From the NCBI GenBank assembly GCA_947184155.2, contig CAMXCT020002079.1, positions 555,004 to 619,003 of the forward strand: a stretch of DNA of 64,000 nt, in the 5' to 3' direction. This document shows positions 17,888 to 49,978 of the stretch, in pieces; the first letter of the stretch is position 1; each line of letters opens with the position of its first letter. Both the position numbers and the translations under genes were made by a program. This DNA comes from Cladocopium goreaui (taxonomy: Eukaryota > Sar > Dinophyceae > Suessiales > Symbiodiniaceae). The notes beneath the pieces are model-generated. The model worked only from the letters and a program-made list of their open reading frames with translations. It did not search any database and had not been told where the DNA came from.

Positions 17888-20062
17888 CACAACTATCATG
17901 TTCAGCGATTCAGAGGGCAATCGTTCAACGCACTTTTTTTGGGGGGGTTCAATGTTCGCTTTTGTCTCGGGATGAGTTTCTACGGGTCCGCAGTCATTTG
18001 GAAAATGGTCCCAGCAATGGGGAACAAAAAAGACCCTGTGAGGTTGGGTCTAGGGCAGTCTAGGGTATATTATAATATAATATTTTATATTGTTATATGT
18101 AATGTCGGGGTATGTCTCATAATATATACATATATAATTGCCCATAATATATAGTGGTTCTTTTCCTAGATGTCTAAATCGTGTGTAATTCATCTAATGT
18201 GGGGGATCAGGTAACTTCTCAGAAGCCACACTGTCAGGTGCATTTGCATGCCATTGCTCGTCCTCTGAACACTTGTTTTCAGAATTCAATGAAGGGAAAC
18301 TCTCAGGAAGCCCCAATACTAGTACTGTGGGTAAAACAATGCCATAACCCACCCATTTGGGAATGGTTTATACCACCTATAAAAATGGTGATTTTGGGGG
18401 ATAATTTTATTATATTGTTTTACCCACATTATAGTTTAATAATAAAACAACATGGTGTCGTGTGAATGGTCCCTGCGTGTATATCTCTTGTCGCAGCTGC
18501 AACTCAGCCAGGCTCAGAGAGTCCTGGTGCAGATCTTCGAATCATCATCCCCAGCGTTCCCGGCCGGAAACTTTCAACAATCCACTGGATTTTTCCAACT
18601 GTTTTTTTGTTGCTGATTCTTAGTCTTTTGGCGCTTGTTTTTGTGCAGGATGAAAGCAACCAAGCATGCAACTCCGAATTCCAAATTATTGTGACCTATT
18701 GTTAAACATTGTGACCGTTTTCATCCCGGTTTTCGATGTTTGCCTGGTTTTAAAACCAAAACTTTTATAGAAAGAAACCCTTGAAACATCAGGTCCTTGC
18801 AGTCCTTGCCCTGATCATCCTGCCTTTGAGTCTGCTCCTTTGTTCTCCCCGCTGCAGCCGGCTCCTTGGGCGCGATGGCCACGGTTGCATGGAGGTCGCG
18901 GGGCCTCCCAGTGCAGAAATGGTCCCAATCACGGGACGGGGTGTGCTGCCCCATGCTGCATCCCAGTGATGGTTGGGTTATGAATGATCACCACCATATA
19001 CAGTATTGTAATCATATTGATGAATACTGTTATGTAATACCATCATTATAACCACATATATGTTGGGTTATACATTATACTGTTATGAATGCTGTCCCCC
19101 AGTGATGAATGATCAGTATTGTAATCACATGTAATTGCAGAAAATTAAGGGACAATTACTGTAACACACCATCAAAAATTATCAACACAGTTTGGCAGAC
19201 GCTCAAAGAAGCGTCGAGTTTGCGGTAGTTCTTGGTATTTTTGACCCATAGCAAATGGGCAAGGCCAAGTTCATCCCTGGTGATTCTTAGGACTCAGACT
19301 TTACTTGTTTTATGATAGAATGGGGGTTGAATGGGGGTGAACTAAGCCTAGGCCCTAGGCACTGGTCAATTGACTGGTGCTTTCATGTGGTTTGGATCAC
19401 CTGAGGGTGCCGTGTACATAGCTCCGATGGCATCCTTAAAACTTCGGTGCTGTCGTGCCATGGGGATGTGCGGGGGATGCAGGATGTGGGTTGAAGCACG
19501 GTTGAACCATGGTAAATCATAACGACCTCACTGCGACCTCACTGGAAATCATGGTTAATTTGGGAAATCATCCCCAAATGGCCGCACGATTCAGGTTGAT
19601 GAAATATTGTAATTTAATGAAATTTACCCAGATGGTTGAAGCATGTTGAAGCACCGAGCCATACCTAAAGATGGTGGGAACGAAGCCTGGAACCTCTGGG
19701 CTCCATGACTCCATGGGCAGGTGCTTCACAAGAGCGAACTGCAGAAGGCCTGGACCCAACAAAATCCTGGTTTCGAAGTGATTATCGAATCGTTTTTTAG
19801 TTTCGATAAGCGAAGTGCTGGGATTAAGAAGGTCACTTTGAATAGTCTTGGAAGGTGATGTTCATTTAGCCCCGCAAGCCAGCTTGAGATGTGTACCTTG
19901 CCTTCAAATCATGCCTTAGATCACCCCAACGGTGGCATTTTGCAAGATTTAACATGCTTTCAACCTCCAATTATAAGATCCCATAGGCCATAAATCTTAC
20001 AACTCAGAAACCATCAGAACTCATCACATTTCATCCTGGATGACAGTCTCCACCATTTGCAG
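17888..20062. other. Stretch between the esterase end and the kinase helix-C exon
   Basis: Contains TA repeats and a CTGGGTAAATTA-family MITE at 19508. A GC-richer island at about 18850-18960 reads LGRDGHGCMEV in one frame, which has a faint glycine-loop look but lacks the conserved middle Gly. I do not call it a gene. Confidence 0.4.
19508..19631. mobile_element. CTGGGTAAATTA MITE, copy 1
   Basis: Shares the interior AACGACCTCACTGCGACC, then TCATCCCCAAATGG, then CGCACGATTCAGGTT with the copies at 20381, 30893 and 38332. The right end is AATTTACCCAG. The left end is decayed (CATGGTAAATCATAAC). Confidence 0.7.
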
Positions 20063-20163: not shown

Positions 20164-23100
20164 GGGGGTCTAGATGTCCAGCCTAGGCCGTGGTTTTTTT
20201 GTGGGTTGGTCGTGGTTGGTCCAAGTGAAAAACACAAGCCAAAATTGCAATTCTAATTGGGAAATGGATGAACATGGTACATGGTAATTAATTAATCAAG
20301 TAACTAAATTGTAAAGACGATGAAATTTAGGGATGCCAACCATTTTTCAGACGCACCTAAAGCCCATATAATACATATATCTGGGTAAATTATGGTAAAT
20401 TAAAACGACCTCACTGCGACTCGACCTCACTGGAATCATGGTTAATAAGAGGAATCATCCCCAAATGGCCGCACGATTCAGGTTATTGAAACATTATAAT
20501 TTACCCAGACACACACACACATATATATATATCCCATCGAATTTTCTCATGGATTATGTCCAAGTCAGTCTTGGCTCGTGACTGCAGGTGATGCGTGGCC
20601 ATGAGTGACTTGGCGACATTTCTGGGTCTGGGGAAATCCGATTAGAAAGACATAGCGGTGCCTCGCCAAGGCATGTCATGGAGGTAGAGGAGCACTTCGA
20701 TGATCAGAGCCTTGACGTTTTATCCGAAGATGGGATATCTTGGGATACCGGGACGAGTCATCGTTGCTTCAGGGGGGCTCAATTTCTCTTCAAAGATCAG
20801 AATTTGAGATTACCAGAGACCAGAGTCGGTGTATATGTATATTAATATATATATATAATAGTTTATAATTATAATTAGCAGGTGCATACATATATAATAG
20901 TATATTATACACATATATATATATTATTTATATACTTATGTGTGTGCATAAAATTTATATATATAGCAGGGCCCATTGGTATTGATGCACCATGACTGGG
21001 GGATCCGGTCATCAAATGTGGCCATTAACTCTAAGACATCCCCGGTCACGGAAATGGAGATTTTTTAGTGGGAAAATCATGGGAAAATCATAGATCTATA
21101 ACTATAACTATCTAGAACTGGTGGATTTTCCAAACCATGGCCATGGATTTCGCTGGTTACCCGAAGGTATTTTTCATGATTTGGCTGGTTCCCATGATGG
21201 TTCCCCTCCAGAAATCCACTGTGATGAGGTATTGCCACTACTGTGTCTTCGAGCTCTGCAAAGGCGGAGCTTGGGGGGGAACTTGGTAGGAGGAGCTGAG
21301 CAATTCAAGCACATCAGATTATGGCAGTCTGTTTCTGGTGCTGAGTAAACACTTTATAGATCTTTACCATGAAATAAAGTGGTGTAATCCATAACCACTT
21401 GGGCAGTTGGTGATCTTTACTGCCAACTTTACCGCCATTTTTTCAAATCTGTACTGTCCATTGCTGGCAGTTGTTTCGCATCAAGTGATTGATCAAGAAC
21501 TTTTCCTATTACTAACTATCCATTACTAGCTTTTCATTACTAACTTATTTTTTCCAACTGTCCATTACTAACTTTTCCTAAGGATCCTCAAACACTGTTG
21601 CAAGTGACTGAGTGTTGGGATGACCGGAAAAGCCTTGTGAGCCAAGCTGATTTGTTGCTACCTTGTCAAGTCCCAAAATCTTTGGTGATCAATACATTAC
21701 GTGCGTAGCCCAGAAGACAAGTAATGCAAAATAAATCCCTACTATCCCTGGATTTACTCGATGATGATTTGGTTTATGTTCATTTATTTTCCCAATGGGC
21801 GGATTGCCTGGGAAAGCGATAGGGAATATGGATTATTTTTCTGGGTTTCCTTATATGAGTAAATTCATGATGGTGATTTAACTGACTGTCTGTTTGGAGA
21901 TCTCCATTTGCCACGATACAGTACTTGTTGACTAGTGATTAGAAGTACCATGGTTTGCAACCTCAATTCGAACTATTCTTGTGTTTATTTAGGCCACGTC
22001 AGGATGAAATAATAGCATTCACTTCATGCTTCCAGAAGGGAAACATAGGGAAACAACATATCACACTGCTTCCAAATGAGTATGGGATGGCATGGGCGAA
22101 TTCTGTAGGCCCAAAAATGTTCCTTCATGTTCCTTCACTAAACAAAAAACGTTTGTAGTATTGTTAGTACAGCAATAGGGTCCATCATCCCCAATTTTTA
22201 CAATTTTTGTGGGTGGTGTAAACATCAAAAGACAGTTTGTTTATTATTGCTTCACTAACATGATTAACAATCATCAGTCATGAGTTAATCATTGTTGAGA
22301 TTGTTGACCATTAATCATTAGTACCCATTATTCACCATTATCACACAACTTCCAGATGGGTATGGGATAGTATGGGTGAATTTGTTGTACCCAAAAAGGT
22401 GTTTCATGATTTTTCATGTTCATTTCTTTTGACTAAAGGTATGTAATACAAACACAATTAATCATCATTAATTATTATTAACCAGTATGAATGATTTGTA
22501 AACATTACTCGTCACTATGATTAATACTGGTTAACTTATGGGTTAATGACGAACAATAATAATGATGCAGAATGAATAGGTAACCATTAGATCATTAGGA
22601 ATCGACAACAACTAAGATGATTAGATACTAATTAGATACTAATAAGTAGTTCGAACAATCATTAGTAACTATTACTATAGTTAGTGACCATAATCAGTAT
22701 AATAACCATTAGTAACTATTATTAATTAACCGTTATGAATCAACATGAACTCAGATGGGCACCAGTCGCCGCTCCGCCAGGCGGCGACCTGTTAGAGGCC
22801 TTGAAACAGCTTCTCTGCCATAGCTGGATGGTTTTAGAATGGACAATCCCAAGGAAAAATGGATGATTTGCGGGTAGCTCCATGTCAGGATACCTCGGAA
22901 ACCTCGAAAATTCATGGTGATTTATTAATATTTATACAACCTGCTGCTTTTTGATGGGAACATTTTCCTGGGACATTCATGAAATTTCATGGGGATTGCT
23001 TTAACACATGTCAGCAAACATGGCTGGCCGGGACATCCCCTATAAATGGAGGAGCTAACGAAATGTTTTTTTTTAAATAGTAACGCCCGAAAAGATGCAG

Positions 23101-30663: not shown

Positions 30664-30892
30664 CCTTGGCACAAAAAACGATTCCACGTGGAATGGGAAG
30701 CCACCACCATTTCTCAATAGGTAAATATTACGGTAAATCCTCCGTAAATGGACCATAATTCTGAGGAATCGACATTGACTAAGATGAGTAACTCATCACC
30801 ATTTTGAACAATCATTACAGTAGTAACTCTTATTGTAGTTAGTGACCATAATCAGTATATATATAATTAATTATAATTATACGTATAATAAT

Positions 30893-31005
30893 CAGGGAAA
30901 ACTATAAAGATCACTGTCCTCCCTCACTGGAATCATGGTTAATAAGGGAGTTCATCCCCAAATGTTTGCACGATTCAGGTTAGTTAAATAGTATTATTTA
31001 CCCAG
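30893..31005. mobile_element. CTGGGTAAATTA MITE, copy 3
   Basis: The right end ATTATTTACCCAG and the interior CCCTCACTGGAATCATGGTT and CACGATTCAGGTTAG match the family. The left end is decayed (CAGGGAAAACTATAA). Confidence 0.7.
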
Positions 31006-31670: not shown

Positions 31671-32073
31671 AAACCATCATCAACCATCATCAACCAGCAT
31701 CAACGATCATCAACCAGCATCAACGAGCATCAAACAGCATCAACGATCATCAACCATCATCAACCATCATCAACCAGCATCAACCAGCATCAACGATCAT
31801 CAACCATCATCAACGATCATCAACCAGCATCAACCAGCATCAACGATCATCAACCATCATCAACCATCATCAACCAGCATCAACCAGCATCAACCAGCAT
31901 CAACGATCATCAACCATCATCAACCAGCATCAACCAGCATCAACGATCATCAACCATCATCAACCATCATCAACCAGCATCAACCAGCATCAACGATCAT
32001 CAACCATCATCAACCATCATCAACCATCATCAACCAGCATCAACCAGCATCAACCATCATCAACCATCATCAT
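31671..32073. repeat. 10-bp tandem repeat CATCAACCAG / CATCAACGAT / CATCAACCAT
   Basis: About 40 head-to-tail 10-bp units, all CATCAAC plus CAG, GAT or CAT (rarely GAG). Variants occur in recurring runs (CAG, CAG, GAT, CAT, CAT), a higher-order pattern of 50-60 bp. The unit is not a multiple of 3, so the 212-codon ORF across it cycles through three reading phases and is an artefact of the lack of stop triplets. Confidence 0.95.
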
Positions 32074-32795
32074 TCCCAAAATTGAGTTTAAGACTGCAAT
32101 ATGAGATTTGTTATAAGCGGGTTACAACCCACATTATAACTGGACTAACCCTAGGTGAACTAGTCCACTCGCGATTTCTGGGGTGAGCCACCATATGTTT
32201 CGCAGCCAACTCCGACTTCCTTCACAAAAAGAAGCAACCCGAAAAACGATAGACAAGTAAATCATTGAAAAACACATGTGAGAAATCTGTGATAAATCAT
32301 GGTAATTCATTACCAGGGTTATAGTCTAAAATTGATTCTTTTCAGAAAAATACATATAAACCCAATGATAGTCAGGAATCCCTTTCTATCTTTCTATGGA
32401 GGGCGTGACCCAAGGCGTGGTTGGCAGATACCGGGGTGCCACCCATGATGGCGCCCAAGGCCAGCAATGGCTGCCACATAACTAGTGTGTCGTTTGGGTC
32501 ATTAATCAACGAGGCTTAGCGGGCTCAAGAATGGGATGGTGAATCCTTTCCACCGTTCATATTTTAATTATTAAACACCCATGTATGAGGATTTTGGGAC
32601 CATGTATGAGGTGTTCGTTATATATAGGATTATATGGGGGACCCCGGGGGATGGGATGTTTTACCCTTTGGTAATATTTTTACATGGGCATGGTAAGTCC
32701 CCCAACTAAATGGAGGACTTTCCAGCCGGACATGTTTGAGTATCGGAGGGTATTGTACATGAAAGAAATGGTAGAACCATCAGAACATATTTTAT

Positions 32796-38325: not shown

Positions 38326-38331
38326 AATTAT
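38326..38331. repeat. 6-bp target duplication (AATTAT) of the split MITE, left
   Basis: AATTAT immediately precedes CTGGGTAAATTA and recurs at 49890-49895 immediately after TAATTTACCCAG, as expected for the target-site duplication of the MITE that received the LINE. Confidence 0.6.
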
Positions 38332-38417
38332 CTGGGTAAATTATAACGACCTCACTGCGACCTCACTGGAATCATGGTTAGCAAGGGGAATCATCCTGAA
38401 ATGGCCTTAATTCAGGT
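38332..38417. mobile_element. CTGGGTAAATTA MITE, copy 4, left part
   Basis: The left inverted repeat CTGGGTAAATTATAACGACC and the family interior run up to GGCCTTAATTCAGGT, where the LINE begins. The right remainder is at 49850-49889. Skipping the LINE and one copy of the duplicated 15 bp gives a continuous element collinear with the copy at 20381-20508. Confidence 0.9.
38403..38417. repeat. 15-bp LINE target-site duplication, left copy
   Basis: GGCCTTAATTCAGGT, repeated exactly at 49850-49864. The perfect match marks both ends of the LINE and suggests a recent insertion. Confidence 0.9.
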
Positions 38418-38423
38418 GGTCCT

Positions 38424-41400
38424 ATGGCCCAAGACCTTCACGTGGTTGGACTGATACATCCCGGGGTGTACAAACATTGGGCCGTGCAATCATTCGCTGA
38501 TGCCATGGATTTGACTGCTTGGGTAGATCTCATCATTGACAAGGAAATTCAAAGTGCCAGTGGAGCCAACATCCAAAAGACAGTTTTGGGACGACCAAAC
38601 ATTTTGGTAGGTGATGTCACATGTTCCAGGGGACGCATCTTTTCCGCAACAGAATTTGTGCCTCCTGGTTGTGCTGGTGCAGCGATTCTCAATGATTTCC
38701 TACAATGGGATGAGTTCAAACCCCTCCAAAGTGTGCAATTGCTTTGGAACATTCAAGGCATGAAGCCAAAGAACCATGATTTTCTCTGGTGTATGAATGC
38801 GAGGGCAAGCAATTTTGGAGATGCCTTTGATTATGAAATTGATCATGAAACGACTGTCATTCCAATTCGAAACACAGCTGATGACCATGTTCACATGTTG
38901 TCACTTTTCGGTGGGGGTTTTGGTGGATGGACCTATGGCATGAAACATTTGTGTGCCTACCATGGAATCTCAGCACAGATCGTTGCAGTAGAATCCGATT
39001 TAATTGCATGTGCAAACTACGCTGCCAATCATGATGTCCCCATCGTCAATGGTTATGCAACTTTGCCATCCAATTTGATGCAACAGATGCCAAAAGGGTG
39101 TGTAATCCATGGGAATGTACTCTCAACGACATGGATTGAACCCATTGCAGAGTGGCACCCGCAAATCCTGACTATCAGTGCTCCATGCCAACCCTGGTCA
39201 GGGGCAGGTCATGCCAAGGGTCTGCTCTCAGCAGAAGGACTCAGTTTTCCTGAAGCATTGTTCCAAGCAAGGTTGCTGCAGCCGGAAGTAATTGGACTAG
39301 AACAAGTCACAGGTTTCAACACCCATGAACAGAGATCCCATGTCATCAAAGTCATTTCCATGATTGGTTATGCTATCAACTGGAGTCGAAGTTTTGATTT
39401 CGCAGTGTGTGGGCCCGTCACTCGCAGCAGATGGATTGCATTGCTTCACCGTATCAGTGACATCCCCCCAATTGATCGATGCCCGTCAAGTTTGTCTTGC
39501 ATGCATGCGAAACATGATCACGATGAGCAATTTGATCAACATGAACCGATTGTAAGTTTTGGGGGGGAGGATATTTCTGTCGACACGATTTTCTCTGGAA
39601 GCGACAGACATGCTCAAAGATCACATGAATTTGGTTTTGACAAGAAGCCAAATGAACACAAACATGATTTGTCCAGCAGTGCATGTGTCTCAGGTGCTGA
39701 GCCAGATATGCATCCAACCAAATCCGAAGCCTATGCATCCGATGAGCATCCGGCATCCGACCGTCAGACATCTCACCATGTTTCTGTAGGTCACGTGTCC
39801 GAAAGCCAGTACTGGTCAAGTCCCACACAAGTCCATGTCCCGCAGCCATTTTTGCAACCGTCAAACCATGCAACCACACAGTCATGCAACCACTTGTATA
39901 ACATGCCACTGCGAATCAATCCAGGTCACAATGTTCAGCCTGTGTCCATGCAACCTGACCATGCCATGAGTCAGAACCTTTTGCCAAAGAAGACTCGTGA
40001 CACAAAAGATACCTTCCTGGATACGGCAATGCCTTCGCAGACACATCCGACCTGTACAGATGACAGTATCGCCACCGTGCATTCACCGTCTGTCCAGCCG
40101 GCATATGTCACAAACCATGCTTGTCCCGTCATGTCCCAGCGGAGTGTATCCAATATCACAGATGCTCAGGTGCCGCAGCCATTTGTGCAACCATGTCCAA
40201 CCAGCACATTTGCAAACCCCAGTCATATGCCTGACCATGCGACAGAGTTTCAACACATGATCATGTCGGATTTGTTGAACCATGTCCCCAAAGCCGTTTC
40301 AAAGGAACACCTGAGGTACCACCATGACAGCCAAAACACACATGATGGAAATTCCATTGGGGATCTTTCTCAGGATAATGACATCAAGCCAAGAATTGAT
40401 ATTTCCCCAAGTGTCATGGGCAAAGATTTTCCACCAGGTGATGCTTTGTTCAATCAGATCTCAGACAGTGACACAGACAAAGAATGTCAGCCGAACGCAA
40501 ACTGCCATTCTCAGGTACCACCGCCAGAGCATGCAGTGAGTGAATTTGACAAAAATGCAGCTGAGCCAAAGTCTGGACCTGGTATCAGCCTTGTCAGGCC
40601 AGTTTTCAACATCAAGAAAAGATCATTTTCGCCACAACAGCTTATTGAACATCTCAAGCTGCCACATGAGGACATCGTGAACCACACACCAAAATCATTT
40701 CAGGCTCTCCTGCCCTTTGACAAAATCGCAGACCCACAGCTGAAGATTTCCGATGACATGAAGAAAATCGTACATGATCAGAACTTCCTGCCAGCAGCCA
40801 AACGACGGAAGCTTGGAGACAAGACCCCCATGCAAATGAGGACTTATTCCCAAGATCAGAAGCTACCGGTCATCATGGCTGCATATGGTAATCAGCACAA
40901 GATCAACCCAGACATTTTGCGTGAAAAAGGATGCCTTGCACATTTCATCCAGGACGAACAATCCGAGCCAAGACTCCTGCATCCATGTGAGATTGCATTA
41001 TTGCATGGCGTCACCAGCAGGTACCTTGCTCTGAAGCATTTTCAACAAGCCTGGAGATTTTTAGGCAATCAAATCACACCATTTCATGCGTTGATGGTTT
41101 TGACAGGAGCCTTCAAGATCATGCCCCAGTTTGACATGAATTTTACCATGCAAGAAGTCTTCAGAACATGGGAATCCCAAAGACTCAAAAACACCAATGT
41201 CATCATGCGCACAGGCCAGGCAGGATGTGTCATCCGTCACATGATCTATGATGAAGATCTCACAGATGATCAACATGCCAACATTCATCACTTCATCCAA
41301 GAGTACGGAAAGAGCATGCTGCCAGACCATCAGTACTGGGACATTGATGGATTTCATTCCATGTGCACCCCAGTTGAAGCGATTCATGACAATCACACAA

Positions 41401-44243
41401 AGACGATGTCCATGGTCACTGAGATTGATCCAGACTCACCAGAACCAGGCATTTCACCCACATTGTCATTTGCCATCACGCTGAGAGCCATTGTGCATTT
41501 GCCCAAAGGGAAGGTGCCTTTCTGGATTGCATCAGACGTCACACCAAGAGATCTGGCGTACCTTTGGTGGACTGCCGGAGAAGTACAGATATCGGAAGGA
41601 GAATGCCACATCTTTCCAGGCAAATGCATTGAAAAATATCACGAACACAATTTGGTGGTATTTCTCGCCGATCGCAGATTGACAGTATATGCACACCATG
41701 ATGACAAGTTCTACGATTTTTGTGCCAGAATCACTGCCTCAGAAAACATCTATGACCAATTCGGACCTGTCACATGTTCCATGAAGCGTAATCATGACAC
41801 CATGATCATGGACCAGCCAGTGAAACATGGGCGATGCAATCATGACATGCCAATCCTTCTTGCGGCTTTTCAGAACTGCACTGAGGTGTATGCCTATGAT
41901 ATCAGCACTGACACATGGAGATGCAAGCTCTCTGGTGATCTTACATCCAGACAGATAGTCGCATCCCTCCTTGCCACTGCCATCGACAAAGAATCATTGC
42001 AAGGCATGGGACGTTTTGTATCAGTCAAACATGCACAAGATTCTGCAGTGGAGTTTGGAGCAGCAGAAGCAGGGGCATCAGCACCGCCCAATGCGTTTGT
42101 CACAGCATTCGTTGTTGCCACTGCCAGAACCATGCTGGACACCTTGCACAGTGCAGATGGTAGAATGATCTCAATCAAATGGAAAGCCAGAACCCTTTGG
42201 AGTGGCAAGATTGATGAACATACTACTGCAGAAATCATCGCCACAGTGCTTTTGTATGCACTTGCACCCATGACCAGCTTTCGTGAAGTGCGACTGATTG
42301 TTCAAGGAAGACAGTTTTGTTCCGGATCCATCCAGCAATTTGCACAGACAGGTGAAAAGCCAATCAAGATACACCTTGCTTTCGAGATGTGTGGAGGAGC
42401 AGGACCGACAGCCACCAAGTCACAACTCAAGCAACAGGTACGAAACTCAGTTGCCTCATGGATGCTTGAAAACCACATCGAACTATCATGGATCAACACC
42501 AATCTGGAAAAGATCATTGAAGACATTGGGGTCAAGCGTTTTGTACCCGTGATTCAACAACCATCCAGCAACAAGCGTGACAGCCAAATGCAGCAGATTC
42601 TCCAAGAAGCTGCCATACAATTGCCACAGCCGACGCCCAAAGTTCAACAAGCAGCCAATGCCATGAAAACCAAATTCAGGAAACAACAGCCAAAGATGCC
42701 AGAGCCACAGCACTTCAAAGTCGATTGCAATTTCCTGCTCAAAGAGGATGGTCAACCGACACAACAACTGCAAGAGTTCAGATGCAATGCCACAGGGGTC
42801 TTTTTGACCAATCCTCAAGGTGCTACACCTTGGCTCAGGGAGAATCAACAGCTTTCATCCGATGAATTGGCCATGCTCGTTCTAGGACCGATGCCAGTGG
42901 AAACCACTTTGCCAACGGAATCTGTGGTCATTCCTTGTTTCAACAGCGATACGCAACAGGTACTCCTGCAGGTAACCATGATCCAGTTTGGTGCCAAAAA
43001 AGTCACACCTAAGCAGTGGGATCAGACAGCCACCAAGACCAATACCAGCAAGGTATGCTCACTCACGCTGTGGAAACAGGACTGGACAGAAGATGAATGG
43101 CATGCTGCAACACATCAAACCACTCAATTTGTCAAGGATGTCTTTGCACATGATGGAGTTCAAGAAGCCATCACAAGTGTTTGGGGACGATCATACAGAA
43201 AAGGAAAACAAGTTGCCACCTTCCGTGATGCCACCAGTGTTCAGATACATGCTGCCATTCAGGATGAACAATTCATGCAGATGCTCAAACTGACAGGCCA
43301 CAACAAAGTCTGGGCAGTACCCAAGAATGAAGATGGCCGACTCACTGATGACTTTCGAATCATTTGGCTACCTCCTACTGTTGATCATCCCAAAGCAGCC
43401 ACCATCACAGCCAAGGTCGCAGGACTTGCAGGGCTTGTCAGAGGAAAATCATCACTTGGAGTTCGGGTCAATGCTAGCATGTTTGCAGAAGCATGGAAAG
43501 CCATCAATCCAAATGCGAAACCTCCAGTTGACGTATCCAACAAGTGGATTTACAAGCTCGAACCCCTGCCGTATGGATGTAACTCTAGCATGTTGGAGGA
43601 ATGGTCCCAGCACATCAAATGGGCCTTTCGGCCACTCAAAGCAACCGGTCCCAAAAGCTGGTTGATTTGCACAGGTGACAATCCTCCACCGGGCCCACTT
43701 CCGTTCAACGGGCACCCTGTCTTGCCGAGGTTTATGCCACAGAAACAGAGCTCCATAGTGCAGCCAATCCTTGCGGGTCCAAGAGGGGTATCAGCCAAAT
43801 CAAATGCCACTGCACACTCTGCTGTGGCACTTATGCCAACCAGCCAAGACCCATGGTGGAATTACCTGAATCGTAATGCGCCACAGCCTGCACCAGGCCA
43901 GGCCCAAGCATCCACCCAGGGGCCCAATGAACAGAGATTTGCCCAACAAGATGCCAAAGTCCAAGAATTGGAATCCAAGCTTGAAGCCCTTACCAACATG
44001 CAAGAGCAGCACACCGGACAGATCCAGCAGCTGCATGCAGATCTCACGGCCACGGAGACCAAGCTTGTACACACTATGCATCAGACCCTGGATGGAGTCA
44101 AACATGAATTGGCCATGTCGTTTGGTGAGGCTCTCAGCAAGCAGACCAAGCAGTTTGAAGCCAATTTTTTGGATCTCAAGAAAACTCTGATCCAATCCAA
44201 GCGCAAAACACCTTCAGAAGGTGATGCCAATATGGATAGTTGA
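38424..44243 (+). CDS. LINE ORF1 protein with C5-cytosine DNA methyltransferase domain
   Basis: 1939 codons. DNMT motifs: I, SLFGGGFGGWTYG (160-172); acidic VESD after strand 2 (189-192); IV, APCQPWSG with catalytic Cys 255; VI, LEQV (292-295, usual ENV); VIII, VTRSRW (332-337). After a His/Pro/Gln-rich stretch of about 500 residues come IX-like RLLHPCEIALLHG (850-862) and X, GNQITPFHAL (881-890). A basic PAAKRRKLG at 790-798 looks like a nuclear signal. Later parts resemble dinoflagellate LINE ORF1 proteins: a GGAGPTATKSQL segment near 1330, W-x-x-RPLK near 1730 and a coiled coil at about 1836-1925. Inferred role: RNA/DNA binding plus CpG methylation of element or target DNA. The start ATG lies 6 nt inside the element and follows an in-frame TGA at 38397 in the target repeat. 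Confidence 0.9.
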   Translation: MAQDLHVVGLIHPGVYKHWAVQSFADAMDLTAWVDLIIDKEIQSASGANIQKTVLGRPNILVGDVTCSRGRIFSATEFVPPGCAGAAILNDFLQWDEFKPLQSVQLLWNIQGMKPKNHDFLWCMNARASNFGDAFDYEIDHETTVIPIRNTADDHVHMLSLFGGGFGGWTYGMKHLCAYHGISAQIVAVESDLIACANYAANHDVPIVNGYATLPSNLMQQMPKGCVIHGNVLSTTWIEPIAEWHPQILTISAPCQPWSGAGHAKGLLSAEGLSFPEALFQARLLQPEVIGLEQVTGFNTHEQRSHVIKVISMIGYAINWSRSFDFAVCGPVTRSRWIALLHRISDIPPIDRCPSSLSCMHAKHDHDEQFDQHEPIVSFGGEDISVDTIFSGSDRHAQRSHEFGFDKKPNEHKHDLSSSACVSGAEPDMHPTKSEAYASDEHPASDRQTSHHVSVGHVSESQYWSSPTQVHVPQPFLQPSNHATTQSCNHLYNMPLRINPGHNVQPVSMQPDHAMSQNLLPKKTRDTKDTFLDTAMPSQTHPTCTDDSIATVHSPSVQPAYVTNHACPVMSQRSVSNITDAQVPQPFVQPCPTSTFANPSHMPDHATEFQHMIMSDLLNHVPKAVSKEHLRYHHDSQNTHDGNSIGDLSQDNDIKPRIDISPSVMGKDFPPGDALFNQISDSDTDKECQPNANCHSQVPPPEHAVSEFDKNAAEPKSGPGISLVRPVFNIKKRSFSPQQLIEHLKLPHEDIVNHTPKSFQALLPFDKIADPQLKISDDMKKIVHDQNFLPAAKRRKLGDKTPMQMRTYSQDQKLPVIMAAYGNQHKINPDILREKGCLAHFIQDEQSEPRLLHPCEIALLHGVTSRYLALKHFQQAWRFLGNQITPFHALMVLTGAFKIMPQFDMNFTMQEVFRTWESQRLKNTNVIMRTGQAGCVIRHMIYDEDLTDDQHANIHHFIQEYGKSMLPDHQYWDIDGFHSMCTPVEAIHDNHTKTMSMVTEIDPDSPEPGISPTLSFAITLRAIVHLPKGKVPFWIASDVTPRDLAYLWWTAGEVQISEGECHIFPGKCIEKYHEHNLVVFLADRRLTVYAHHDDKFYDFCARITASENIYDQFGPVTCSMKRNHDTMIMDQPVKHGRCNHDMPILLAAFQNCTEVYAYDISTDTWRCKLSGDLTSRQIVASLLATAIDKESLQGMGRFVSVKHAQDSAVEFGAAEAGASAPPNAFVTAFVVATARTMLDTLHSADGRMISIKWKARTLWSGKIDEHTTAEIIATVLLYALAPMTSFREVRLIVQGRQFCSGSIQQFAQTGEKPIKIHLAFEMCGGAGPTATKSQLKQQVRNSVASWMLENHIELSWINTNLEKIIEDIGVKRFVPVIQQPSSNKRDSQMQQILQEAAIQLPQPTPKVQQAANAMKTKFRKQQPKMPEPQHFKVDCNFLLKEDGQPTQQLQEFRCNATGVFLTNPQGATPWLRENQQLSSDELAMLVLGPMPVETTLPTESVVIPCFNSDTQQVLLQVTMIQFGAKKVTPKQWDQTATKTNTSKVCSLTLWKQDWTEDEWHAATHQTTQFVKDVFAHDGVQEAITSVWGRSYRKGKQVATFRDATSVQIHAAIQDEQFMQMLKLTGHNKVWAVPKNEDGRLTDDFRIIWLPPTVDHPKAATITAKVAGLAGLVRGKSSLGVRVNASMFAEAWKAINPNAKPPVDVSNKWIYKLEPLPYGCNSSMLEEWSQHIKWAFRPLKATGPKSWLICTGDNPPPGPLPFNGHPVLPRFMPQKQSSIVQPILAGPRGVSAKSNATAHSAVALMPTSQDPWWNYLNRNAPQPAPGQAQASTQGPNEQRFAQQDAKVQELESKLEALTNMQEQHTGQIQQLHADLTATETKLVHTMHQTLDGVKHELAMSFGEALSKQTKQFEANFLDLKKTLIQSKRKTPSEGDANMDS
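44241..44243 (+). other. Single TGA between ORF1 and an in-frame ORF2
   Basis: ORF1 and the endonuclease part of ORF2 are in the same frame. The codons from 44244 to the first ORF2 ATG at 44412 contain no stop, so only this TGA separates them. Readthrough or reinitiation could therefore link the products. Confidence 0.85.
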
Positions 44244-44411
44244 CTGCCAGAAAAGAACCAACCATTAATTCATTTTGCATTTTATAGAGAACATTCGGAT
44301 TTGCATTCGTTTTCTGTTCCCACTTTGTCACCTAAATCCGACTGTAATCATGCCAAGATTTTGCCGCAACAGCGCACCGTGTGTGCACTTAGCCAAATCA
44401 GAGCACGAAGA

Positions 44412-46559
44412 ATGCTCACTTTTCTCAAGGGAAGGGATGTGGGGAATCGACACATGCCTCATCACTGTCACAGCCTTGCAGCCAGAGCTGCTTGTAACTG
44501 GGTAGTGCTATACTTTTGTTACTGTCTTGCCAACAATGTCCGACACCAATATGCACCCACTTTGGGTCATGCCAGCCGAATAGGTGAAGCTAAGAATCCG
44601 GGGCCAAACAGGGGCACATGCCTCATCAACATGGTCCTTGCCAATCCGACCAGTCTTGCCAATAAAAAGGATACTCTCACTCAACTTTTAACACAAGAAC
44701 AAGTAAATGTACTGTGCTTGGCAGAAACCTCTGCCACAGAAGAAATACAGTCACAATGCCAAAAGGACATGGCTAAACTGGGGTATAAAACCTTTTGGTC
44801 CAACCCTGTTGCACCACAAAGAACTTGCCAAAGTGGAGCAGCCAGCATCAGAGGCAGAGCAGGTGGCACGGCAATAATTGCCAACGTGCCCATGCGTAAG
44901 TGCAGAAACCCACTGCCACCGGATTGGAAATCCAGCACACGTATCACACATACCATTGCCAGTTGGGGGCAGTCACACATCCAAATTATCACTCTTTACA
45001 GCATCCCACAGAGCCATAACCAAGCCAAAGAATTTCTCAATAACATGTTAACCATGACGCTGCACCAAGCAGCCACAGTGCCATTACCTTTCATCATTTG
45101 CGGAGACTTCAATATGGAGCTACACCACTTGCCCATTTGGGAATCTTTCCTGCGTAAAGGATGCAGTGATTTAATAACACTCCATTTGCAAAAGTATGGA
45201 ACGGAGATGAAGCCCACTTGTCAAGGAGTTACACGACCTGACAATGCCATTGTGTCACGTCAACTCATACCATACTTGGGCCACATCAAAGTTCTTTCCC
45301 CCGAATGGTTTGCCACCCACTGCCCGGTCTTTTTCAACTTGCAGTTGCCACAAGAATCCCTGTTTAAATATACCCTTAAGATGCCAAACAGTTGGGTTGA
45401 ACTTGCCGTGGATGCGCCTGACCTTCAAGCGGCATACCAAAGAGATACCCAAATCCCCCTTTCTACCACCCTGGAGGAATGGGGGCAGAAGCTCGAGGCT
45501 CTGGTAGATTCTAGCCTACGTGATGCCTACACCAAACACCCCACTGGTTTTTCACATTTGCCGAGATCATATCGGGGTAGATGCCAGCCAAGACAACCAG
45601 TGAAGACACCAGTGTATAGCTCAGTACGTAAGGCCAGACAGGGAGACTTTGAACCGCTATACGAAGTCAACACCATGCCGACAAAACGAAAAATCAAACA
45701 GACCAGAAGAATTCAAAATCTCTTGAGAAGAATCCAAAAACTTGAACAGGTTGATGTACCTAATCCCACTTACACTCATGAGTGTCAACAAGAATGGATC
45801 ACCATCCTGAAATCACATGCTTTTGGAGTTCCTTTTCATGAATGGTTGACAGATATCCCTGAAATTGGACCGCCACAATGGCCTCTGCCTACAGCCGCAT
45901 GGTTGCAGGAGGTAAATCAAATGGTCCAACACACAGTCACCCATGAGATTGCCAATGACCACTTGATCTTTGCCAAAAAATGCCAGTTTGCCAGGACATG
46001 CGATCAAAAATACCATGGATCATCCCAAGCTTTTTCGAAAGTCAAGGGGAAGCCTCCGGCACCTATCACTGAAGTATATTTGCCGGTTAAAGCAGAATGC
46101 ATCCTGGTGTGGAATCATGACTTGCGACAGGTCGAATGTTTTTGCGAAGATCCCAGTGCCTTTACAGGTCTTGCACCAGTTAAGCTACTAGAATCTGTAG
46201 GATGGATAGTCCAACATGATAGCCATAGTTTCACAGTGCAATTCCATGACATGCCAGAGATTGCCGAGGTGACAGCCACAGTCACACAGGCGCAATATGT
46301 CGTAGAACCAAGCCAAGTTGCAGACCAGCTTTCCAATTTTTGGACTCCCTTATGGCAAGCCCCCCATGATATGGATCAAAAAGATAGTTGGCCGGAGTTT
46401 GAACAACTGCTCCAACACCTGCCAGTTTTCGAAGATTCATTTCAGTTTGATGACTCTTTGCAACAATGGAAAGCCACAATCAAAAAATGCGTTCCTCTTC
46501 CGCCAGAGGATTTGATGCAGTATCAGCTCAGGAACTCAAGTTGTTACCAGATGAAATGA
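44412..46559 (+). CDS. LINE ORF2, part 1: AP-type endonuclease
   Basis: Frame open from 44244; the first ATG is 44412. Upstream of the enzyme lies RIGEAKNPGP (44577-44606). Endonuclease/exonuclease/phosphatase motifs follow in order: N in LANPTSL, E in CLAETS, LYSIP, ICGDFNME (45099-45116), RPDNAIVS and ATHCPVFF. The last motif normally has Asp-His; here Thr-His. The enzyme would nick target DNA to prime reverse transcription. About 380 residues of linker with basic segments follow. The frame runs into KATIKK and then leaves the conserved sequence at AAAAAA (46482-46487), ending at TGA 46557-46559. The conserved reading continues in the -1 frame as RSSSARGFDAVSAQELKLLP. With one more A the two parts would be a single ORF. 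Confidence 0.88.
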   Translation: MLTFLKGRDVGNRHMPHHCHSLAARAACNWVVLYFCYCLANNVRHQYAPTLGHASRIGEAKNPGPNRGTCLINMVLANPTSLANKKDTLTQLLTQEQVNVLCLAETSATEEIQSQCQKDMAKLGYKTFWSNPVAPQRTCQSGAASIRGRAGGTAIIANVPMRKCRNPLPPDWKSSTRITHTIASWGQSHIQIITLYSIPQSHNQAKEFLNNMLTMTLHQAATVPLPFIICGDFNMELHHLPIWESFLRKGCSDLITLHLQKYGTEMKPTCQGVTRPDNAIVSRQLIPYLGHIKVLSPEWFATHCPVFFNLQLPQESLFKYTLKMPNSWVELAVDAPDLQAAYQRDTQIPLSTTLEEWGQKLEALVDSSLRDAYTKHPTGFSHLPRSYRGRCQPRQPVKTPVYSSVRKARQGDFEPLYEVNTMPTKRKIKQTRRIQNLLRRIQKLEQVDVPNPTYTHECQQEWITILKSHAFGVPFHEWLTDIPEIGPPQWPLPTAAWLQEVNQMVQHTVTHEIANDHLIFAKKCQFARTCDQKYHGSSQAFSKVKGKPPAPITEVYLPVKAECILVWNHDLRQVECFCEDPSAFTGLAPVKLLESVGWIVQHDSHSFTVQFHDMPEIAEVTATVTQAQYVVEPSQVADQLSNFWTPLWQAPHDMDQKDSWPEFEQLLQHLPVFEDSFQFDDSLQQWKATIKKCVPLPPEDLMQYQLRNSSCYQMK
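44577..44606 (+). other. 2A-like motif RIGEAKNPGP at the ORF2 N-terminus
   Basis: The ten codons end NPGP, the hallmark of 2A ribosome-skipping peptides (consensus D-x-E-x-N-P-G-P). Here the conserved Asp and Glu positions are Gly and Ala. In several APE-type LINEs of animals and trypanosomes a functional 2A lies at this same place, just before the endonuclease. Whether the dinoflagellate form skips is unknown. Confidence 0.5.
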
Positions 46560-49500
46560 TCCAAGAGCTCATGATGGTATGCAATGCGTACCCTCATGGT
46601 TTCCCTGCCTGGTTCATGCGTGCCAGAGTATGCCCCCTAAGCAAATCAGAAGATGTCCCCAGGCCACACCAAAGCCGACCAATTTGCATTCTTAGCCAAA
46701 TTTACCGCCTGTTTGCTGGAGTTTTTTGTACACAGGTCCTTCGTTTTTGGGCCCAAAAATTTCCCCCAGCCATAACTGGCATGCTCCCCTCCAGAGGATC
46801 TCATGATGCGGCTTATGCAGTGCAAATCATGGTGGAGCTTGCAGGCATGAGAGGCCACTCCCTCTCAGGCCTTACACTGGACATCAAAAAATGTTTTAAC
46901 TGCATTAGGCATGCGGCAGGACACCGTTTACTACTTGCATTGGGCCTACCAGAAATCAGAGTCAACCAATTCATGCTCAGTATCAAAAAAATGCATAGAT
47001 TTTGGGAAATTAATGGACAGAGCATAGGACCTATCCATGCCACGTGCGGGTTTCCGGAAGGCGATGCTCATTCAGTGCTTATCATGCTTGCAGTTGCGTT
47101 GCTATGGGCTTCCAACACACAAGCGGCCACTGGACCCACTTTTGTTGCCTCAGCCTATGCAGATAACTGGGCTTGGATCACCAGAAACTTTGAAGACAAT
47201 GGCCCTGCTGCCAGTGCCACAGCGAAGGTCACCAATGAATGTGGTTTATCCATCGATTGGGACAAAACCTGGCGATGGGCAACCGATACCACTACCGCTG
47301 AAAACGCCTTGACTTCCATCCAAGCTGCCATTCCATCCAAGGAAGTCGAACGATGCCATAATGCCAAAGATCTGGGCCTCCAATTGCACTACTCAGGAAC
47401 TAGAAACCTTGGAAGTAGAAAAGAAAGGTTTGAGAAGGGCATGCTCCGAATGTCAAGATTGAACCACTTGCCACACCCTCTCACAGTTAAAGAACATGTC
47501 CTCAGGAATAGCATATACCCTGCCATGTTTTATGGATCAGAACTTTTCCCAGTGTCCAGTGACATGCTGACCAAGGTACGAACTGCAGCAGCCGAAGCTC
47601 TCGTAGGGTCTTCCCATAGTATGTCCCCTGCACTGGTTCTACTTTTAACCAAGGGCACCATTTTGGACCCTGAGTTTGTAGTCATGACTCAAGCGATGCG
47701 TACAGCCATACAATGGCTTTCCAAGCAGACTGCAGATGTTCAAAATGACTTTTTCCTTGCCACTGCCCAGTTTGTGGGAAATACAATGAATACGAAGGGT
47801 CCTGCTTCCACCCTAAAACACTATCTCAACAAGCTGTCGTGGAGTTTTGATTGCCAGGGCCATTTGCTTATTGATGGGGTCATCAAGTGTCACTTAGTGC
47901 GTGATGGTTTTCATACTATCCAGCGTTTCATGAGTTTGGCTTGGCAACAACATCTTGTGTTGCACTTGACTTCCAGGTTCAGTTTGTTTTCCATGCCTGA
48001 CGTGTCCAGGAGTGATACTTTAGCCATCTTGAAAACTTTCCCTGACAAAAACCGTAGGCAGCTTTTACGTGAAATTTCAGGGGCATACCAGCTTGAAGCG
48101 CAGAAAGCGCATTGGGTTGAAGACAGCTCTGGGGTTTGCACTTTTTGTGGGGAGCAAGACAGCAAGGCCCATCGACTCTTTGAATGCCCCACATTCGCAC
48201 ACATCCGTGAACCATACACACATGTCTTGCAGTGTGCAGAAGAAGAAGGACTGACACTTGCAGATATGGCAGTGATACACTCTCATGCAGACATGCAGCT
48301 CCATCATGTTTTACACCATCAACAACCAAGTGCCATTGTGGCAGATGATTTCCATGCGTTTGCACAGCAGCGACAGAGGAATTCACAGCCATTCAACATC
48401 TACGTTGACGGAAGCTGCTGCAACCCGAGATTCCCAACATCTCGATTTGCAGCGTTTGCAGGGGTTATTGATTTGGCTGATAATGACTTTCACCGTCGAG
48501 AACTTGCATATGCCTTCAAAACCAGTGGAAGTGTTCCAACCACTTTTGCAACATGCTTTGCAGCCCGGGTGAGGGGCTTCCAAAATATCCCAAGAGCTGA
48601 ACTTTTGGCATTGCAGACAGCAGCATCCATTCCATATGGGGTTATTCATTCCGATAGTAGCTATGCCATCCGGCAAGCGACTAAGGTGCTTTCTGATACT
48701 TCCAAGCTTTATGCAACTTCCAATGCTGATGTTCTATGGGAGATACATGAAATGCAACCAGATGTCCGACGATTTCGTAAGATTAAAGCACACAGAAACC
48801 TGCACGAAATCGATGACCTGCTTGACCTATACCATGCGTTAGGAAATCACACAGCAGACGAAGCAGCAAAACTAGCGTGCCAGAAGCTGAATGCAGATTG
48901 GTGCAACCAGATGCACCAATTCCATGAACAGACCAACACAGCGAGGACAATTCTGCGGGAGTGCTATCAACTACATATTGAACTGTTTCAGGCAAGAGCA
49001 CAGGCCGTACAACAGATGACAAGGCAGGATGCTACAACACTCAATGCAGTTGATAAAGTTTCTCCAGAACATGTTTTCTCCAAAATTGTCCAATGGTCAC
49101 CTACAGACATACAAGAACTTGTGTTTCCTCAGGGAGTTCAAGACTGGTTTTTGCAATTTTCATGGGGACCTTGGTGGGCAGATAAAGTTTTTTCGTGGAT
49201 GCAACTTTTTCGTTGGCCCTTAGAGCCACAGGGGCCACTTGACAAAGAAATTGGTGTTTCATGGCTCGAACTTGCCTTATCACTCTCCTTCCATGTTGCA
49301 AAATGTTTACCAATTCTAAGGAAAAATCAACAAGGTCATGTACGTTTGCTGATGGTAGAGGACAATAAAGACATCGCTGATCATGCCATTCAACACACTG
49401 ACATCGCTACAACGATGCAAAAAATGTGGACTCAGATGACCATTTTGCTGCCAGTTGAAGCAACACCTAAGGTGGGTAAAGGTTTACAGTCTTCCTTGTA

Positions 49501-49756
49501 CGTGCAGGGTTTTGGCCAAAGTGTAAGCGGCTTGACACCGCGACCATGCTTCCCCCACCAGACACCAGTTGCGGAATACATCCGCAAACACTTGCAATCC
49601 AGAAAGTCTTATGAATCCCCTTTTTCACCATATTGGCTTGATGATCGTCAGCACGTGCTGATTGATAAGGACTGGCAGCTTATTTGCAACACCTTCAAAT
49701 ACCGTCAACGGACAGAGAAAGCAAGACAACGGGTATTCAGCCAAGCTGAAATGTAA
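46466..49756 (+). CDS. LINE ORF2, part 2: reverse transcriptase, zinc knuckle, RNase H
   Basis: 1096 codons in the -1 frame relative to part 1; conserved sequence begins at SARGFDAVS. RT motifs: A, LDIKKCF (Asp at 46880-46882); B, GFPEGDAHS; C, YADN (47156-47167) where the usual form is YxDD. A thumb-like region is followed by a CCHC knuckle C-x2-C-x7-H-x4-C (48137-48187). RNase H then has its catalytic set: YVDGSC (Asp 48407-48409), IPRAELLAL, IHSDSS and NHTADEAAK, plus the basic KIKAH loop. A C-terminal region of about 270 residues with Trp-rich stretches is typical of dinoflagellate LINE proteins but has no named domain. Role: target-primed reverse transcription and RNA removal. It stops at TAA 49754-49756. 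Confidence 0.9.
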   Translation: MESHNQKMRSSSARGFDAVSAQELKLLPDEMIQELMMVCNAYPHGFPAWFMRARVCPLSKSEDVPRPHQSRPICILSQIYRLFAGVFCTQVLRFWAQKFPPAITGMLPSRGSHDAAYAVQIMVELAGMRGHSLSGLTLDIKKCFNCIRHAAGHRLLLALGLPEIRVNQFMLSIKKMHRFWEINGQSIGPIHATCGFPEGDAHSVLIMLAVALLWASNTQAATGPTFVASAYADNWAWITRNFEDNGPAASATAKVTNECGLSIDWDKTWRWATDTTTAENALTSIQAAIPSKEVERCHNAKDLGLQLHYSGTRNLGSRKERFEKGMLRMSRLNHLPHPLTVKEHVLRNSIYPAMFYGSELFPVSSDMLTKVRTAAAEALVGSSHSMSPALVLLLTKGTILDPEFVVMTQAMRTAIQWLSKQTADVQNDFFLATAQFVGNTMNTKGPASTLKHYLNKLSWSFDCQGHLLIDGVIKCHLVRDGFHTIQRFMSLAWQQHLVLHLTSRFSLFSMPDVSRSDTLAILKTFPDKNRRQLLREISGAYQLEAQKAHWVEDSSGVCTFCGEQDSKAHRLFECPTFAHIREPYTHVLQCAEEEGLTLADMAVIHSHADMQLHHVLHHQQPSAIVADDFHAFAQQRQRNSQPFNIYVDGSCCNPRFPTSRFAAFAGVIDLADNDFHRRELAYAFKTSGSVPTTFATCFAARVRGFQNIPRAELLALQTAASIPYGVIHSDSSYAIRQATKVLSDTSKLYATSNADVLWEIHEMQPDVRRFRKIKAHRNLHEIDDLLDLYHALGNHTADEAAKLACQKLNADWCNQMHQFHEQTNTARTILRECYQLHIELFQARAQAVQQMTRQDATTLNAVDKVSPEHVFSKIVQWSPTDIQELVFPQGVQDWFLQFSWGPWWADKVFSWMQLFRWPLEPQGPLDKEIGVSWLELALSLSFHVAKCLPILRKNQQGHVRLLMVEDNKDIADHAIQHTDIATTMQKMWTQMTILLPVEATPKVGKGLQSSLYVQGFGQSVSGLTPRPCFPHQTPVAEYIRKHLQSRKSYESPFSPYWLDDRQHVLIDKDWQLICNTFKYRQRTEKARQRVFSQAEM
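46482..46487 (+). other. A6 run at the ORF2 frame change
   Basis: ATC-AAA-AAA-TGC in the upstream frame; the conserved protein continues if a seventh A is supposed. Either a 1-nt loss in a homopolymer, an assembly error in a homopolymer, or a -1 slippage site. The heptamer C-AAA-AAA is not a perfect slippery site. Confidence 0.75.
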
Positions 49757-49799
49757 CAAAGTGGTTCACCTGCCAAAAAGGCAGAGAGCGCGTGGATCT

Positions 49800-49833
49800 G
49801 AGCCTGTGCTCTGCTTCTGCTGGGCACAGGCTC
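49800..49833 (+). other. 3-prime stem-loop of the LINE
   Basis: GAGCCTGTGC and GCACAGGCTC pair perfectly over 10 bp around a 14-nt loop, ending 16 nt before the element end. Stringent-type LINEs use such a 3-prime hairpin for recognition by their own RT. There is no poly(A) or microsatellite tail. Confidence 0.75.
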
Positions 49834-49849
49834 CTTTTGGAAGGAAAGG

Positions 49850-49864
49850 GGCCTTAATTCAGGT
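49850..49864. repeat. 15-bp LINE target-site duplication, right copy
   Basis: GGCCTTAATTCAGGT, identical to 38403-38417. Confidence 0.9.
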
Positions 49865-49889
49865 TAGTGAAATATTCTAATTTACCCAG
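49850..49889. mobile_element. CTGGGTAAATTA MITE, copy 4, right part
   Basis: The duplicated 15 bp, then TAGTGAAATATTCTAATTTACCCAG, which completes the MITE whose left part is 38332-38417. It is followed by AATTAT, matching the left flank of the MITE. Confidence 0.9.
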
Positions 49890-49978
49890 AATTATCATAG
49901 TTATGACAGTTCATTAAATATATATATATATATTTCTGGTAATTTCCATAGATTTTCCCATGAACGTTGTAGTTTTTA

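What the first reader, a model, noticed from the sequence alone, without database searches (positions are those of the whole stretch)
38418..49849. Near-complete retrotransposon that carries its own DNA cytosine methyltransferase
Seen: one unit bounded by a perfect 15-bp duplication contains DNMT motifs I, IV (PCQPWS), VI, VIII, IX and X in ORF1, and endonuclease, RT and RNase H in ORF2. Known: LINEs with DNMTs were reported from Symbiodinium, with evidence that such enzymes methylate CpG. Inference: the element could methylate its own cDNA or its target, either hiding from or manipulating host silencing. This copy, with intact ORF1 and one lesion in ORF2, is good material for asking whether other dinoflagellate lineages share the system.
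Basis: partly seen in the sequence, partly recalled or inferred. Interest (0 to 1): 0.9.

Follow-up and report, generated by a model that had tools for sequence, protein, structure and literature searches.

The report
Methyltransferase-carrying retrotransposon with a fixed target
A dinoflagellate jumping gene that carries its own DNA-methylating enzyme, a kind described in 2018, turns out to insert at one exact spot inside another small mobile repeat and to carry what looks like a ubiquitin-like domain.

Summary
Confirmed. 38418-49849 is a LINE-type retrotransposon with perfect 15-bp target duplications: ORF1 carries a C5 DNA methyltransferase; ORF2 carries endonuclease, reverse transcriptase and RNase H, with one frame interruption. 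Three unoccupied paralogous sites show that it went in as one unit. The kind is known: SymbioLINE-Dnmt (de Mendoza et al. 2018, PMC5890265).

Not named in that paper's main text: (1) Target specificity: 12 of 14 genomic copies examined at the 3' end, nine independent loci, sit at the same base of one ~120-bp inverted-repeat element; a copy 99.7% identical in its body has different arms and flanks. (2) A ubiquitin-like domain in ORF1 ending in Gly-Gly (sequence evidence only). (3) A 464-626-residue stretch where 11 of 11 other ORF1s have 73-79, at the enzyme's target-recognition position.

The methyltransferase is about as constrained as the reverse transcriptase, and the element is CpG-poor. 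What it methylates is inferred. Host: an unnamed 1.17-Gb genome, presumably dinoflagellate.

The parts
38418..49849 (+). LINE-type element, 11,432 bp
   Evidence: TSD-bounded; empty-site paralogues; same-length copy on C96 with 11,397 of 11,433 aligned positions identical
38403..38417 (+). target-site duplication, 5' copy
49850..49864 (+). target-site duplication, 3' copy
38331..38417 (+). left arm of the target repeat (MITE-like, starts TCTGGGTAAATTA)
49850..49890 (+). right arm of the target repeat (ends TAATTTACCCAGA)
38424..44243 (+). ORF1, 1939 aa
38898..39458 (+). DNMT motifs I to VIII (FGGGFGGW, PCQPWS, EQV, TRSR)
   Evidence: Pfam; PDB profile HhaI 3.3e-13; pS 0.69-0.74 against pN 0.10-0.20 on five contigs with diverged copies, two of them sharing flanks
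39459..40703 (+). Ser/Pro/Asp/His-rich insert at the target-recognition position, with two PQPFxQP motifs
   Evidence: 464 residues between VIII and a conserved Arg before IX here, 626 in P0001, 73-79 in 11 of 11 others with the full region
40704..41123 (+). DNMT motifs IX and X (RLLHPCEIALLHG, LGNQI)
   Evidence: alignments; invariant Arg and Gly-Asn
42129..42398 (+). ubiquitin-like domain ending in Gly-Gly (residues 1324-1325)
   Evidence: window sequence alone gives no hit
43929..44240 (+). C-terminal helical, probably coiled-coil tail of ORF1
   Evidence: only sub-threshold Pfam matches; inferred
44412..49756 (+). ORF2, one frame interruption near 46481-46487; start inferred from where relatives begin
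44634..45203 (+). APE-type endonuclease
   Evidence: Pfam PF03372 above, PF14529 below its cut-off
46667..47272 (+). reverse transcriptase, motif C YADN
   Evidence: motif counts
48395..48880 (+). RNase H
49800..49833 (+). 3'-UTR hairpin, no poly-A
   Evidence: RNA fold of 49754-49849: -42.4 kcal/mol, z -3.74; similar 3' ends in other copies, by eye
20380..20509 (+). unoccupied copy of the target repeat
19511..19616 (+). unoccupied copy of the target repeat
30885..31005 (+). unoccupied copy of the target repeat

Best explanation
A young copy of a SymbioLINE-Dnmt-type non-LTR retrotransposon. Shown by sequence: ORF1 carries a complete C5-MTase motif set, a ubiquitin-like segment and a long C-terminal part; ORF2 carries endonuclease, RT and RNase H; the element sits at one fixed position of a ~120-bp terminal-inverted-repeat element (MITE-like), in the variant reading GGCCTTA(A/T)TTCAGG. 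Inferred: the endonuclease nicks that site, RT starts at the conserved 3' end by target-primed reverse transcription, and the second strand is cut 14-15 bp away (further in one truncated copy). The DNMT, delivered in the same ribonucleoprotein, methylates CpG in the new cDNA and/or target, so that the copy is already marked when it enters the genome. The Gly-Gly ubiquitin-like segment is either a cleavage site for host deubiquitinase-type proteases that frees the DNMT, or a docking domain.
For: Domains. Single insertion. Linkage in the genome. Target specificity: the 3' junction is the same on 12 of 14 contigs examined; the 12 collapse to nine independent loci because three contig pairs share 300 identical flank bases. 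Six copies share the 5' junction. C96 body 11,397 of 11,433 identical, left arm 80 of 86, right arm 39 of 41, outer flanks unrelated. Selection: DNMT I-VIII pN 0.10-0.20 against pS 0.69-0.74 on five contigs (four loci), RT pN 0.16-0.23, insert pN 0.47-0.56. CpG o/e 0.44 in the element, 0.61 in flanks, 0.556-0.663 in 60 overlapping flank windows; codon-junction CG 96 against 277.7 expected, 0 of 500 synonymous shuffles as low, with TG and CA in excess. Kinship: ORF1s Skav205464 and symbB.v1.2.003254, both with PF00145, found by profile; reading these prefixes as S. kawagutii and S. minutum is recalled.
Against: No methylation by a SymbioLINE-Dnmt domain was detected in yeast. Motif VI reads EQV, not ENV. 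CpG loss could be made by host enzymes; flanks are CpG-poor too, and TA is also low at codon junctions. No DNMT-less LINE was compared. Of the 12 RT matches, four have no DNMT-end match: C6070, C5942, C2752 look 5'-truncated, C4515 was not examined. Two of 14 contigs did not show the 3' junction: C5639 (43-base match) and C2374, whose LINE homology stops at window 48879 in the stretch read. No fold was obtained; the ubiquitin match covers only ubiquitin's C-terminal half, the window's sequence alone gives none, and the segment varies more (pN 0.23-0.28) than DNMT or RT.
Confidence: 0.75

Rival explanations
1. The DNMT acts on RNA (the element's own transcript), not on DNA.
For: No DNA methylation in yeast by the SymbioLINE domain, and the authors raise this possibility; the DNMT sits in ORF1, usually the RNA-binding ORF of LINEs (known biology).
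Against: CpG depletion with TG and CA excess is the mark of methylated DNA; the best methyltransferase matches in PDB are DNA enzymes (HhaI 3.3e-13 against 8.6e-5 for a DNMT2-type tRNA enzyme).
Confidence: 0.2
2. The DNMT domain is kept as a nucleic-acid-binding or structural part and is not catalytic.
For: Long insert at the target-recognition position; EQV in motif VI.
Against: Motif residues for SAM binding and catalysis invariant in seven aligned members; low pN in diverged copies.
Confidence: 0.12
3. The inverted-repeat arms belong to the mobile unit: a DNA transposon that carries a LINE as cargo, not a LINE that targets the repeat.
For: On nine contigs whose 5' side was read the LINE follows the arm; 4-bp direct repeats lie outside the arms, ATTA in the window and TAAA on C96 (by eye).
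Against: C96 arms differ (80 of 86, 39 of 41) while the body is 99.7% identical; perfect inner TSD; empty arms-only copies; 5'-truncated LINE bodies at the same site.
Confidence: 0.1
4. Two unrelated neighbours: a DNMT gene beside an RT.
For: None found.
Confidence: 0.01

Closest known systems
SymbioLINE-Dnmt (Symbiodinium; de Mendoza et al. 2018, PMC5890265)
   Same: ORF1 with DNMT upstream of ORF2 with Exo_endo_phos, RVT_1, RNase_H; TSD; no poly-A; intronless; CpG-depleted; purifying selection on the DNMT
SymbioDIRS-Dnmt3 (same paper)
   Same: retrotransposon-borne cytosine DNMT of dinoflagellates
   Different: DIRS type with tyrosine recombinase, Dnmt3 in Pol, de novo CG activity shown in yeast
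Target-specific LINEs such as R2, or Tx1L in the transposon Tx1D (recalled, no call)
   Same: fixed 3' junction in a repeated target; for Tx1L the target is another transposon
   Different: no DNMT known to me in those; sequence kinship not tested
Ubiquitin fusion proteins such as eS31 (PDB 6zj3_Sf)
   Same: ubiquitin-like segment ending in Gly-Gly followed by further protein
   Different: N-terminal half not matched by sequence; embedded inside a LINE ORF1

Membership tests
SymbioLINE-Dnmt | DNMT in ORF1 upstream of an RT ORF | tested here: met
SymbioLINE-Dnmt | Exo_endo_phos, RVT_1, RNase_H in ORF2 | tested here: met
SymbioLINE-Dnmt | TSD, no poly-A tail | tested here: met
SymbioLINE-Dnmt | conserved 5' and 3' UTR | tested here: inconclusive
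   last bases of the 3' end alike on 12 of 14 contigs; 5' UTR only 6 nt, same start in six copies
SymbioLINE-Dnmt | sequence kinship with S. kawagutii / S. minutum elements | tested here: met
   Skav205464 and symbB.v1.2.003254 ORF1s by profile; nine Skav ORF2s at 29-39%; the window's ORF1 falls in its own clade of four (the tool warned of long branches). Species reading of the prefixes is recalled; the published element set itself is not held
SymbioLINE-Dnmt | CG dinucleotide depletion | tested here: met
   no DNMT-less LINE compared
SymbioLINE-Dnmt | orphan DNMT clade, not Dnmt3 | not tested
   no reference DNMT set held
C5 cytosine methyltransferase | motifs I, IV, VI, VIII, IX, X with catalytic residues | tested here: met
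   VI is EQV
C5 cytosine methyltransferase | catalytic activity | not testable with these tools
   -
site-specific LINE | same junction at independent loci | tested here: met
site-specific LINE | preference over all available sites | not tested
   empty-site pattern search unanswered
ubiquitin-like domain | sequence profile match to ubiquitin with terminal Gly-Gly | tested here: met
   single sequences are below threshold or give nothing
ubiquitin-like domain | beta-grasp fold | not testable with these tools
   structure tool full, then switched off

The most novel reading that the evidence does not exclude
A retrotransposon that hides by design: it inserts only into one small mobile repeat, pre-methylates its copy or the target during insertion, and matures its DNMT-bearing ORF1 by host deubiquitinase-type cleavage at a captured ubiquitin-like Gly-Gly. 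If the target repeat also supplies splice sites (its ends read GTAAAT...CCCAG), insertions in genes would be spliced out as well.
Probability: 0.12. Interest if true: 0.88.

Novelty: new variant of a known kind. Interest (0 to 1): 0.62.

Why it matters
The role of DNMTs in retrotransposons is an open question of the 2018 paper. A fixed target makes it testable: the same ~120-bp repeat with and without the element can be compared for methylation, copy by copy. A ubiquitin-like domain in a LINE ORF1 would add a new way of protein maturation or host contact to retrotransposon biology. My paper searches on it found no paper or listed papers (4, 5 and 15 of 16) whose titles and abstract beginnings do not describe one.

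Tried and rejected
Programmed frameshift in ORF2: rejected, relatives read straight through. Unrelated neighbours: rejected. 5'-truncated copy: rejected, six copies share the 5' junction. Dinoflagellate spliced-leader relic: none in the window with up to 3 mismatches. Viral or prokaryotic source of the DNMT: one IMG/VR contig at 30% over the core and no confirmed match in genome contigs; no conclusion drawn. Prior report of a LINE targeting a MITE in dinoflagellates: one search gave 571 papers for at least three of four terms, eight listed, none by its title about this; too loose to show absence. Pfam on the ubiquitin-like piece alone: no hit; window piece alone against PDB: no hit. The C96 dN/dS of 2.12 for motifs IX-X lies where that copy's ORF1 changes frame and is not taken as positive selection. 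Gene models P0002 and P0003 start inside the insert and were left out of the spacing count as lower bounds (144 and 133 residues). The fragments of A8 were picked with a pattern that requires Gly-Gly, so its invariance there proves nothing; I rely on A7.

Full report
WHAT IS THERE. The unit 38418-49849 is bounded by a perfect 15-bp duplication. ORF1 (38424-44243, 1939 aa) gives a Pfam DNA_methylase match over residues 159-343 (E 3.5e-10); ORF2 is read in two pieces with Exo_endo_phos, RVT_1 and RNase_H. The unit has no poly-A tail and ends in a hairpin-rich 3' UTR (z -3.74). tblastn of the ORFs finds no second copy in the window (E up to 1e-3).

ONE UNIT. Joined flanks match three unoccupied copies of a ~120-bp repeat with inverted ends in the same window (20388-20509, 83%; 19511-19616, 85%; 30885-31005, 76%), collinear across the junction. 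In the window's own genome (1.166 Gb, 6,202 contigs) a 1-kb RT probe has 12 matches and a 1-kb DNMT-end probe has 10; the tool calls such counts lower bounds. They share contig and strand on eight contigs: seven about 8 to 9 kb apart, C471 about 15 kb. Four RT matches have no DNMT-end match, and two DNMT-end matches (C1314, C764) have no RT match.

FIXED TARGET. I fetched ten of the eleven other RT contigs. On the nine contigs, the window's included, where the 5' side could be read, the LINE follows the same left arm of the repeat; on three of them (C6070, C2752, C5942) the arm is followed by a shorter LINE body, and on C6070 the whole repeat precedes it, so that a longer stretch is duplicated. 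Six copies share the 5' junction, differing there by up to two bases. The 5' side of C3371 is cut by the contig end and that of C471 was not fetched. At the 3' side, 12 of 14 contigs examined show GAAGGAAA(G/T)G... followed by CCTTA(A/T)TTCAGG; C5639 (a 43-base match) does not, and on C2374 LINE homology stops at window 48879 in the stretch read. Three contig pairs (C5922/C3371, C5942/C2752, C210/C1645) share 300 identical flank bases, leaving nine independent loci. The C96 copy has a body of the same length with 11,397 of 11,433 aligned positions identical, but arms of 80/86 and 39/41 and unrelated outer flanks: two separate insertions into two repeat copies. Four unoccupied copies seen (three in the window, one on C96) carry other letters in the middle of the target (GCACG or GAACT in place of TTA). 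Whether empty copies of the TTA type exist did not complete.

THE METHYLTRANSFERASE. Residues for motifs I, IV, VI (Glu), VIII (Arg-x-Arg), IX and X are invariant in seven aligned members. Between VIII and a conserved Arg before IX this ORF1 has 464 residues and P0001 626; 11 of 11 other ORF1s with the full region have 73 to 79. That is the place of the target-recognition domain in this enzyme class (known biology). The insert is rich in Ser, Pro, Asp and His and repeats PQPFxxP (two here, four plus a variant in P0001). Nei-Gojobori counts, window against genomic copies on C1298, C5922, C3371, C6095 and C2374 (C5922 and C3371 share flanks): DNMT I-VIII pN 0.096-0.196 with pS 0.685-0.743, RT pN 0.158-0.228 with pS 0.748-0.781, insert pN 0.472-0.563, ubiquitin-like segment pN 0.231-0.282. 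Synonymous sites are saturated or nearly so, so ratios are only indicative.

UBIQUITIN-LIKE DOMAIN. A profile of full-length ORF1s with the window's C-terminal part (A7, 12 rows, no region chosen for ubiquitin) gave 202 PDB sequences up to E 10, of which the best 60 were shown: only C5 methyltransferases and ubiquitins or ubiquitin fusions (polyubiquitin 9.1e-18, summed over repeated units; eS31 fusion 1.4e-3; best single ubiquitin 0.016). An earlier five-row profile (A1) had eS31 only at 0.97, among chance hits. A profile of that region alone gave single ubiquitin chains at 1.4e-5 to 4.3e-4 (best 60 of 266 shown); the region was chosen after I had noticed the likeness. hhalign against ubiquitin plus NEDD8 gave 94.4%, against at most 1.2% in 100 column shuffles. 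The match covers about ubiquitin residues 41-78 only. Gly-Gly is invariant in the 12 rows of A7, which left out P0118 (ends before it), P0119 and P0120 (no such part). P0116 carries two such segments. Against: the window's sequence alone hits nothing in PDB or Pfam; P0116 alone reaches ubiquitin only at 0.64, below a chance-like hit at 0.24. No fold was obtained.

CpG. Element o/e 0.44, flanks 0.61. At codon junctions CG is 96 against 277.7 under synonymous shuffling, TG 455 against 302, CA 484 against 260, but TA is also low, 125 against 271, so part of this may be context bias.

WHAT IS KNOWN. I read of PMC5890265 the outline, the first two of seven parts of the full text, the sections on methylation patterns and de novo methylation, the Discussion, part 1 of Methods, and term passages. 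It describes SymbioLINE-Dnmt with this architecture and reports CG activity for SymbioDIRS only. PMC12344493 (passages) refers to SymbioLINE DNMTs as orphans; PMC9998398 (passages) cites the 2018 work. A search for 'SymbioLINE' lists five papers, of which three concern DNA methylation.

PLACE. A profile of ORF1s finds Skav205464, whose locus of 5,424 bases equals its 1,807 codons plus stop, hence intronless, and symbB.v1.2.003254, both with PF00145; I take the prefixes as S. kawagutii and S. minutum from memory. In the ORF1 tree the window groups with P0002, P0001 and P0003 (15 rows, with a long-branch warning), in the RT tree with P0014 and then P0017 and P0005, inside a 24-row clade that includes five Skav ORF2s (92 rows: relatives without enough of the RT were left out). 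The host species is not established; a dinoflagellate is inferred from these relatives.

VERDICT. The mechanism of the DNMT remains inferred.

Noticed in passing
46466-49753 and relatives P0005-P0110: RT active-site letters are shifted family-wide: motif C second Asp is Asn in 99 of 104, motif B PQG reads PEG in 98 of 102 and is followed by Asp in 97 of 103, motif A FD reads FN in 97 of 100 (the usual letters are recalled). A paper search for YADN with reverse transcriptase listed one E. coli genome paper.
   Followed up: partly
38331-38343 and 49878-49890: Ends of the target repeat read TCTGG|GTAAAT and ATTTACCCAG|A, which would do as splice sites; it may be an introner-like element.
   Followed up: no
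P0119, P0120: Two more distant ORF1s with DNMT motifs lack the ubiquitin-like part and instead have repeated HW...CGW motifs that recall cysteine proteases (by eye, no database support).
   Followed up: no
44241-44300: ORF1 stop and the first part of ORF2 lie in the same reading frame, with the first ATG of ORF2 near 44412.
   Followed up: no
genome G000: PF00145 search gave 2,685 first-look candidates, of which 123 were scored, and 125 matches, best 1.2e-54 on contig C1; the window's own DNMT is not among the listed matches.
   Followed up: no
G000 C96 copy: The near-identical copy reads through the ORF2 spot but has its own frame change in ORF1 (tblastn).
   Followed up: partly
12876-13773 and 31548-32186: Long tandem-repeat arrays open in one frame (units of 12/60 and 10/50 bases); no sign that they code.
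   Followed up: no
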